64,000 nucleotides of DNA from Callorhinus ursinus (taxonomy: Eukaryota; Chordata; Mammalia; Carnivora; Otariidae). The notes beneath the pieces were generated by a model that saw nothing but the letters and a program-made list of their open reading frames with translations, was not told where the DNA came from and searched no databases. The DNA is taken from positions 7,924,450-7,988,449 of the forward strand of contig NW_020313057.1 of the NCBI RefSeq assembly GCF_003265705.1, given 5' to 3'. The position numbers and the translations under genes were made by a program. Positions 13,968 to 40,021 of the stretch are shown piece after piece. The first letter of the stretch is position 1. Each line of letters starts with the position of its first letter.

Positions 13968-14603
13968 ATGTCTGCAGAGAGCATAATCTTGGGCAATCTG
14001 GATAGCCTAAGAGGAAAGAGCTACTATTTCTTATATTGACATGTTTTTACTTTTAATTTCTATATGGATCATTTTCCATATAGAAATGGGGAGAACATCT
14101 GAATGCAAGATTTTTGCACCTATGTCAGTTGAACGAAGCCAGGCTTTTTTTCCCCATGATGGACTGGCACATTTAGTCACTTATATCCGTGTAAACTTTT
14201 TCCCTCCACAGTGGGACTCTCAGTCTCCCCTTCATTTCTAACTGTTGCTATTTATATACCATATTACATTCTCTAATTTCCTTTTATCTTTTCTTTATTT
14301 TGCAGTGTCTCAGTACGTGTCTCTTTAAGACAAGTTAATTTAGCCAATTACTCCAGTTTTGTTGAAGATAAAATCTTTAATTTATCCAGGCCTCCTTTAT
14401 TCTTTCTAGGATACTCTTTTCATTAATTTCATGAAGCATTCTAATTTTCCGGTTTAGGGAAAAGCTAATTTCCCCACATACATGCACACACACAAGCTCA
14501 GATGCAAACCAATATATAAGGATATTGCCAAAACTGATTTTTCCCCTCCTTTTTCTAGATAATCTTTTTTTTCTTTTGCATTTTCAAGGTATTTGAAATA
14601 GTA

Positions 14604-14636
14604 ATAGATTTCTCTATTTCAAATAGAGAAATCTAT
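14604..14636. repeat. Perfect inverted repeat, 16-bp arms, 1-nt loop
   Basis: ATAGATTTCTCTATTT, then C, then AAATAGAGAAATCTAT. The left arm ends in CTATTTC and the upstream stretch 14592-14600 (TTTGAAATA) can also pair with it, giving nested alternatives. This could form a cruciform. It looks like a fold-back duplication. Confidence 0.9.
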
Positions 14637-24838: not shown

Positions 24839-24964
24839 ATTTATTTGCACAGTACTGTAACACACAAAATCTGGGGGATTTCTATTTCCCAAACATTGTC
24901 AAATAGACGTCTACCAAAAAAGAAAATTATGAGGTTTACTTGTAGTATACTTTTGTCCCCAAAA
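24839..24964 (+). repeat. Source of a local inverted duplication
   Basis: This 126-bp unique stretch reappears in reverse complement at 25906-26030 with roughly 90% identity by eye and a 2-nt deletion. Markers are TTTATTTGCACAGTACTGTA here against CAGTACTGTGCAAATAAAT-type sequence there, plus TTGACAATGTTTGGGAA. Confidence 0.88.
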
Positions 24965-25725: not shown

Positions 25726-25743
25726 CTCCAAAGTAACAAATTT

Positions 25744-26044
25744 GGGGGGCTGGATGGCTCAGTCAGTTAAGCATCTGTCTTTGGCTCAGGTCATGATCTC
25801 AGGGTCCTGGGATCAAGCCCTGCATCAGGCTCCCTGCTCAGAGGGGAGCCTGCTTCTCCCTCTGCCTGCCGCTCCTTTGGCTTATGCTCTATCTCTTTCT
25901 GTCCCTTTTGGGGACAAAAGTACTACAAGTAAACCTCATAATTTTATTTTTTGGTAGACTTCTATTTGACAATGTTTGGGAAGTAGAAATCCCCCAAATT
26001 TTGAGTGTCTATAGGACTGTGCAAATAAATAAAATCTTTCTAAG
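25744..26044 (+). mobile_element. CAN-SINE interrupted by an inverted local duplicate
   Basis: The SINE head and body run 25744-25905, ending in the CT-rich TCTCTTTCTGTC. The normal tail AAATAAATAAAATCTTTCT resumes at about 26023. Between them, 25906-26030 is a reverse-complement copy of 24839-24964. The whole composite is flanked by one target duplication, AAAGTAACAAATTT (25730-25743) and AAAGTAATAAATTT (26045-26058). The extra block is therefore inside a single insertion. Confidence 0.9.
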
Positions 26045-26058
26045 AAAGTAATAAATTT

Positions 26059-29007: not shown

Positions 29008-29059
29008 ATATGCAACCTCACATTCTATTTTTCAGAATATAGAATGTGAGGTTGCATAT
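29008..29059. repeat. Perfect inverted repeat, 21-bp arms, 10-nt loop
   Basis: Left arm 29008-29028 contains TGCAACCTCACATTCTAT; right arm 29039-29059 is its exact reverse complement; the loop is TTTTCAGAAT. Two perfect 21-bp arms are far beyond chance in a 64-kb window. Confidence 0.95.
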
Positions 29060-39318: not shown

Positions 39319-40021
39319 TAAAGAGGCTGAGAAAAAGAGAGAGAAACAACTACAGGATTACGAGGGCAGAATTCGAGAGATAAGTGATACGATAATACGA
39401 AACAACATTAGAGTAATTGGGATCCCAGAAGAAGAAGAAAGAGAGAGAGGGGCAGAAGGGATATTGGAGCAAATAATAGCAGAGAACTTCCCTAATGTGA
39501 GGAAGGAAACAGGCATCAAAATCCAGGAGGCACAGAGTACCCCTCTCAAAATCAATAAAAATAGGTCAATTTTTTGACCTATTGGTACTGGTTGAGACCT
39601 GATTTGTGACCTAGGATGTGATCAATTCTGGAGAATGTTCCATGGGCACATGGAACATTATTACTATTATTACTATAGTTTTACTATTAGATGTCCCCGA
39701 CATCTAATAGTAAAACTTACGAGTCTCAGAGACAAAGAGAAAATCCTGAAAGCAGCACGGGAGAAGAGATATGTAACCTACAATGGTGGAAATATTAGAT
39801 TGGCAACAGACCTATCCACAGAGACCTGGCAAGCCAGAAAGGACTGGCAGGATATCTTCAGAGCACTAAACGAGAAAAATATGCAGCCAAGAATACTATA
39901 TCCAGCTAGGCTGTCATTGAAAATAGAAGGAGAGATAAAAAGCTTCCAGGACAAACAAAAACTAAAGGAATTTGCAAACACGAGACCAGCCCTCCAAGAA
40001 GTATTGAAAGGGGTCCTCTAA
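39319..40021 (+). pseudogene. L1 ORF1, truncated and rearranged
   Basis: Encodes parts of the ORF1p coiled coil and RNA-binding domains. Before the break it has the NNIRVIGIPEEEERERG motif. After it, from about 39699, it resumes with PRHLIVKLTSLRDKEKILKAA and ends ALQEVLKGVL with TAA at 40019-40021. The N-terminal third is absent and the insert at 39567-39698 destroys the join. Not translatable as a functional chaperone. Confidence 0.88.
39560..39717. repeat. Cluster of three fold-back hairpins inside L1 ORF1
   Basis: Three perfect inverted repeats lie end to end: 10-bp arms at 39560-39569 and 39574-39583; 8-bp arms at 39637-39644 and 39649-39656; 19-bp arms at 39677-39695 and 39699-39717 with a CCC loop. 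Between the first two, about 39583-39648 is an inverted piece of L1 ORF2 (the endonuclease region, matching the plus strand at 8935-9001). Confidence 0.92.

What the first reader, a model, noticed from the sequence alone, without database searches (positions are those of the whole stretch)
25744..26058. A SINE whose tail contains an inverted copy of DNA from about 1 kb upstream
25906-26030 is the reverse complement of 24839-24964 (roughly 90% identical by eye). It sits between the CT-rich body and the AAATAAAT tail of one CAN-SINE. The whole composite is bracketed by a single target duplication (25730-25743 and 26045-26058). The source ends in AAATAAAT, the same motif as the SINE tail. This fits a reverse transcriptase that began on the SINE tail, switched to nearby genomic sequence through AAATAAAT, and returned to the SINE RNA. 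A later replication template switch is the alternative.
Basis: partly seen in the sequence, partly recalled or inferred. Interest (0 to 1): 0.78.

Follow-up and report, generated by a model that had tools for sequence, protein, structure and literature searches.

The report
Local inverted copy inside SINE tail
A common carnivore-type mobile element carries, at the start of its AAAT tail, an upside-down copy of 126 bases that lie about 1 kb upstream; it looks like an ordinary local DNA copying error guided by a short matching motif, and nothing shows that it happened while the element was inserting.

Summary
Window 25906-26030 is the reverse complement of 24839-24964: 8 substitutions and two small indels over 127 columns, 92%. 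It splits a Can-SINE-like body (25744-25903) from its AAATAAATAAAATCTTT tail; a 13/14 target duplication brackets the whole. The block was found at these two places only in the 2.67-Gb genome, so a repeat family is very unlikely.

The reverse-transcriptase story is not supported over a DNA-level event. A SINE's target duplication brackets later insertions too (nested example L043). Divergences do not date the block: 8/122 for the SINE against 8/124 over two branches, P=0.12. One junction has AAATAAAT, the other two extra bases; no clear inner duplication. A second genome-unique inverted copy of similar size and distance lies about 30 kb away, its presumed copy in non-SINE DNA without target duplication.

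Best reading: microhomology-guided template switching or break repair at a SINE tail, more likely after insertion than during it. A switch during reverse transcription is not excluded. No relative's genome was held, so the decisive orthologue test could not be run.

The parts
24839..24964 (+). Presumed source of the copied block; begins with ATTTATTT (= AAATAAAT on the - strand)
   Evidence: alignment; one of two places genome-wide
25730..25743 (+). 5' copy of the SINE target-site duplication, AAAGTAACAAATTT
25744..25903 (+). Can-SINE-like body (tRNA-like head to CT-rich end ...TTTCTGTC)
   Evidence: 40 scored relatives genome-wide, 84-93% identical besides itself; the family name is by recall and by PMC6230240/PMC9599045
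25904..25905 (+). CC at the body-side junction, matching neither source nor usual SINE end (filler, or SINE end)
25906..26030 (-). Inverted copy of 24839-24964; its last 8 nt (26023-26030) are shared with the SINE tail
26023..26044 (+). SINE tail AAATAAATAAAATCTTTCTAAG
   Evidence: sequence; compared with other tails
26045..26058 (+). 3' copy of the target-site duplication, AAAGTAATAAATTT

Best explanation
A Can-SINE inserted in the ordinary way at 25730-25743. Separately, and more likely later, DNA synthesis through the SINE (during replication or repair of a break at the start of the AAAT tail) switched to the inverted sequence about 1 kb upstream, copied about 118-126 nt, and returned by the 8-nt AAATAAAT match to the SINE tail; the other junction was joined with at most two extra bases. 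Shown: an inverted local copy, the microhomology at one junction and none at the other, no clear duplication around the block, two genomic places only. Inferred: the enzyme, the direction of synthesis, which copy is the source, and the later timing.
For: Block found at two places genome-wide. AAATAAAT shared at the tail side; CC and no match at the body side; no direct repeat longer than the CT-type heptamer TCTTTCT between the sequences flanking the block. No SINE sequence lost between CTGTC and the tail beyond normal tail variation. A second local inverted pair about 30 kb upstream (123 bp, 88%, about 1.77 kb between arms) is also genome-unique; the flanks of its presumed copy share only 4 nt and it has no A-tail. 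Of 15 low-copy inverted pairs kept in 264 kb, 5 have separated arms and 10 are hairpins, as expected where local template switching is common. The MMBIR paper describes insertions that are nearby, inverted and flanked by microhomology (PMC8421209, passages). Point estimate of age: SINE 6.6% from consensus on one branch, block pair about 3.2% per branch.
Against: Equal age is not rejected (P=0.12), and some of the SINE's 8 differences may be inherited from its own sub-lineage (L029 shares the TT change). The block sits exactly at the body/tail boundary of a retroelement. Local-switch studies seen here search much shorter ranges (templates within 100 bp in PMC8421209). Only one other strong long-arm case was found in 264 kb, so the background rate is weakly known, and which of its arms is the copy is inferred.
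Confidence: 0.66

Rival explanations
1. Switch during target-primed reverse transcription: the reverse transcriptase copied the SINE tail, the cDNA end (ATTTATTT) paired with the - strand of the source about 1 kb upstream, copied it, and then resumed on the SINE RNA.
For: Block lies between body and tail inside one target duplication; the 8-nt match is at the tail side, where the enzyme would leave; ages compatible; LINE-type reverse transcriptases do switch templates to RNAs (PMC4476161 and PMC13174262, passages).
Against: Needs two switches and a return to the same SINE RNA point without a match. The switches in the passages seen are to RNAs, not to local genomic DNA and back. In the 264-kb sample 1 of 72 SINE places is of this kind; pattern searches for exact CTCTCTGTC...AAATAAATAAAATC with an insert showed no second locally templated case among the rows listed (31 of 31; only the listed parts of 117 and 523; rows show at most 80 nt, and only five candidates were fetched).
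Confidence: 0.24
2. Switch during second-strand synthesis or gap closure of the SINE insertion, by a host DNA polymerase: same time as insertion but not the reverse transcriptase.
For: Rightward top-strand synthesis has the source about 1 kb behind it and the 8-nt match at the return point (geometry).
Against: No evidence specific to it; indistinguishable here from a later replication switch.
Confidence: 0.08
3. The block is an interspersed repeat or an independently retrotransposed piece nested in the tail.
For: Nested pieces in SINE tails do occur: a truncated L1-like piece in L043 and an antisense U2 fragment in L045.
Against: Only two genomic places; no duplication of its own around the block as in L045 (12 nt).
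Confidence: 0.02

Closest known systems
Short-range template-switch mutations, four-point model (PMC7954356, passages seen)
   Same: Inverted copy of nearby sequence inserted in place, describable by four points; return to the original strand
   Different: Source is about 0.94 kb away from the insert; the model in the passages seen assumes local events within one replication fork
MMBIR-linked templated insertions (PMC8421209, passages seen)
   Same: Nearby, inverted, microhomology at a junction
   Different: That survey looked for templates within 100 bp and short inserts; here microhomology is clear at one junction only
Templated sequence insertions at breaks, class 2 TSIP (PMC5110952, passages seen)
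   Same: Patch with microhomology or extra bases and no duplication of its own
   Different: Those are templated from distant regions and thought to come from RNA; this one is local and inverted
LINE-mediated chimeras by template switching, such as U6/L1 (PMC4476161, PMC13174262, passages seen)
   Same: Foreign sequence joined to a retroelement inside one target duplication
   Different: Partner there is an RNA fused to the 5' end; here a local genomic block between body and tail, with both SINE parts kept

Membership tests
Can-SINE insertion | tRNA-like body, CT-rich stretch, AAATAAAT tail with TCTTT | tested here: met
   defining parts as in PMC9599045 (passages)
Can-SINE insertion | target-site duplication | tested here: met
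   13/14
Local inverted templated insertion (template switch / MMBIR-like) | inverted copy of nearby sequence | tested here: met
   92% over 127 columns, 942 bp between arms
Local inverted templated insertion (template switch / MMBIR-like) | microhomology at junctions | tested here: inconclusive
   8 nt at the tail side, none clear at the body side where CC is extra
Local inverted templated insertion (template switch / MMBIR-like) | arises after, and independently of, the SINE insertion | tested here: inconclusive
   divergence comparison P=0.12; no relatives held
Reverse-transcriptase template-switch chimera | all parts arrive in one insertion event | not testable with these tools
   G000 has no relatives in the collection
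Interspersed repeat family | many genomic copies of the block | tested here: not met
   2 places, both in this window
Independent retrotransposed piece nested in the tail | target duplication of its own | tested here: not met
   longest shared word between the two flanks is TCTTTCT, CT-type SINE sequence not abutting the block on both sides

The most novel reading that the evidence does not exclude
During a SINE insertion the reverse transcriptase left the SINE RNA at AAATAAAT, copied 126 nt of genomic DNA about 1 kb from the target, and returned to the same RNA point: a two-switch insertion using local genomic DNA as template.
Probability: 0.2. Interest if true: 0.6.

Novelty: new member of a known kind. 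Interest (0 to 1): 0.22.

Why it matters
If it had arisen during insertion, it would show a reverse transcriptase using nearby genomic DNA as a detour template, which the passages read here do not describe. As it stands it is one more local inverted templated insertion, placed so that it can be mistaken for an insertion product. It is a useful caution: a SINE's target duplication says nothing about when an internal block arrived.

Tried and rejected
Repeat family: rejected (two places). Independently retrotransposed nested piece: no duplication of its own. Dating by divergence: tried, inconclusive. The consensus came from 20 copies that I chose out of 40 scored matches (of 999 first-look candidates), leaving out near-identical twins on neighbouring contigs and the weakest rows; the first 6 columns and CpG-prone columns were left out of the count.

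Search for sister cases: patterns with exact CTCTCTGTC and AAATAAATAAAATC. The feature itself does not match them (its body ends CTTTCTGTC), so they sample only part of the family, and and one search listed only the first of their 117 and 523 places. Five candidates were fetched: L043 is a nested L1-like piece (L1 by likeness and recall), L045 a U2 fragment, L044, L046 and L047 are not SINE composites (by eye). Wider pattern, denominator pattern and the 576-bp source search never got an answer. The second inverted pair (L022) was first thought to support a retrotransposition link because one arm follows an L1-like 3' end; I dropped that, since the other arm, which I take for the copy, has neither tail nor duplication. 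One search printed 12 local pairs; some are multi-copy L1-type repeats and were not counted as evidence.

Full report
What is there. The alignment of 24839-24964 with the reverse complement of 25906-26030 has 8 substitutions and two small indels in 127 columns, 92%. The best score among 195 random inverted neighbour pairs was 16.5, against 101 here. The inverted copy lies inside a Can-SINE-like element: body 25744-25903, two bases CC, the copy, then the tail AAATAAATAAAATCTTTCTAAG (26023-26044), of which the first 8 bases are shared with the copy. AAAGTAACAAATTT and AAAGTAATAAATTT flank the whole. The family name comes from recall and from papers on Can-SINEs (PMC6230240, search listing with start of abstract; PMC9599045, passages).

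Is it a repeat? The window lies in genome G000, contig C180. A whole-genome search with the block found two places, both in this window. The tool warns that it skips very common words, so this shows rarity rather than proves uniqueness. A 264-kb neighbourhood (plus the window) holds 72 SINE-like places; of 64 with a located tail motif only the feature has non-SINE sequence between body and tail.

Junctions. On the tail side source and SINE share AAATAAAT. On the body side the source continues ...GGGATATA|TTTTGGGG and the composite reads ...CTGTC CC TTTTGGGG, with no clear match. The two flanks of the block share no word longer than TCTTTCT, which is CT-type SINE sequence, so the block has no target duplication of its own. 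Other copies run from the CT-rich end straight into AAATAAAT, so nothing of the SINE is missing beyond normal tail variation: this is a pure insertion at the start of the tail.

Timing. The outer target duplication cannot date the block. L043 shows this: an L1-like piece sits inside a SINE tail, and the SINE's own duplication (11 nt, AAGTAGAATTG) lies outside it, with a short inner repeat CAAAT. The SINE body differs from the majority of 20 selected genome copies at 8 of 122 non-CpG sites (6.6%; those 20 copies average 3.9%, range 0-7.7%); the block pair differs at 8 of 124 sites over two branches. If the two have one age, a SINE count this high or higher has P=0.12, or 0.083 if one block change at a CpG is left out. 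The point estimate makes the SINE older, but equal age is not rejected, and some SINE differences may be inherited (one of the 20, L029, shares the TT change). The target duplication differs at 1 of 14.

Background. A sensitive scan of the 264 kb kept 15 inverted pairs of low copy number: 5 with separated arms and 10 hairpins; before the copy filter there were 65 raw pairs against 14 in a reversed control. One of the five, L022 (C180:7916843-7916965 with 7918731-7918848), about 30 kb from the feature, is 123 bp, 88%, and had two places genome-wide. Its second arm, which I take for the copy, has no A-tail, and its flanks share only 4 nt; its first arm follows an L1-like 3' end. So a similar inverted copy arose here without marks of retrotransposition, but this is one case. 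The other three separated pairs are weak: 73%, 71%, and 24 bp of AT-rich sequence.

Sister cases. Pattern searches for SINEs with an insert between CTCTCTGTC and AAATAAATAAAATC gave 117, 523 and 31 places; the first two lists were cut short, and the feature itself does not match the pattern. Among the rows shown, by eye, I saw no second locally templated block. L045 has an antisense U2 5' fragment in the tail (Rfam U2, E=5e-06, below the gathering score) between copies of GTCAAATAAATA: a nested insertion with its own duplication, unlike the feature.

Mechanism. For DNA synthesis running rightward, the polymerase leaves the SINE at CTGTC, copies the block, and returns to the tail by the AAATAAAT match: one match-guided return explains why the SINE resumes exactly. 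For reverse transcription (leftward), the match is at the exit and the return to the same RNA point is without a match. Neither is proved. I put 0.66 on DNA-level switching or repair, mostly after insertion, 0.24 on reverse transcription, 0.08 on second-strand synthesis at insertion, 0.02 on a repeat or nested piece.

Literature. Seen as passages only: PMC7954356, PMC8421209, PMC5110952, PMC4476161, PMC13174262, PMC9599045. Literature searches showed no paper whose title or abstract start describes a SINE with a locally templated inverted block in its tail; that is a limited search of one open-access library.

Noticed in passing
L022:2394-2516 and C180:7918731-7918848 (about 30 kb upstream of the feature): Second genome-unique local inverted duplication, 123 bp, 88%, about 1.77 kb between arms; one arm follows an L1-like 3' end.
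   Followed up: partly
window 29008-29059 and 39677-39717: Near-perfect hairpins with arms of about 20 bp, the kind of mark short-range template switching leaves.
   Followed up: no
window 14056-14087 and 14604-14636: Two more short hairpins about 550 bp apart.
   Followed up: no
L045 (C7:110947900-110948450): A Can-SINE tail holds an antisense U2 snRNA 5' fragment between two copies of GTCAAATAAATA.
   Followed up: partly
L043 (C51:48824200-48824950): A Can-SINE tail holds a truncated L1-like 3' piece with a short inner repeat CAAAT; the SINE's own duplication brackets both.
   Followed up: partly
G000 assembly: Many SINE matches come in near-identical pairs at similar positions of neighbouring contigs (for example C149/C150, C131/C132), as if part of the genome is held as two haplotypes; the feature's contig C180 showed no twin of the block.
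   Followed up: no
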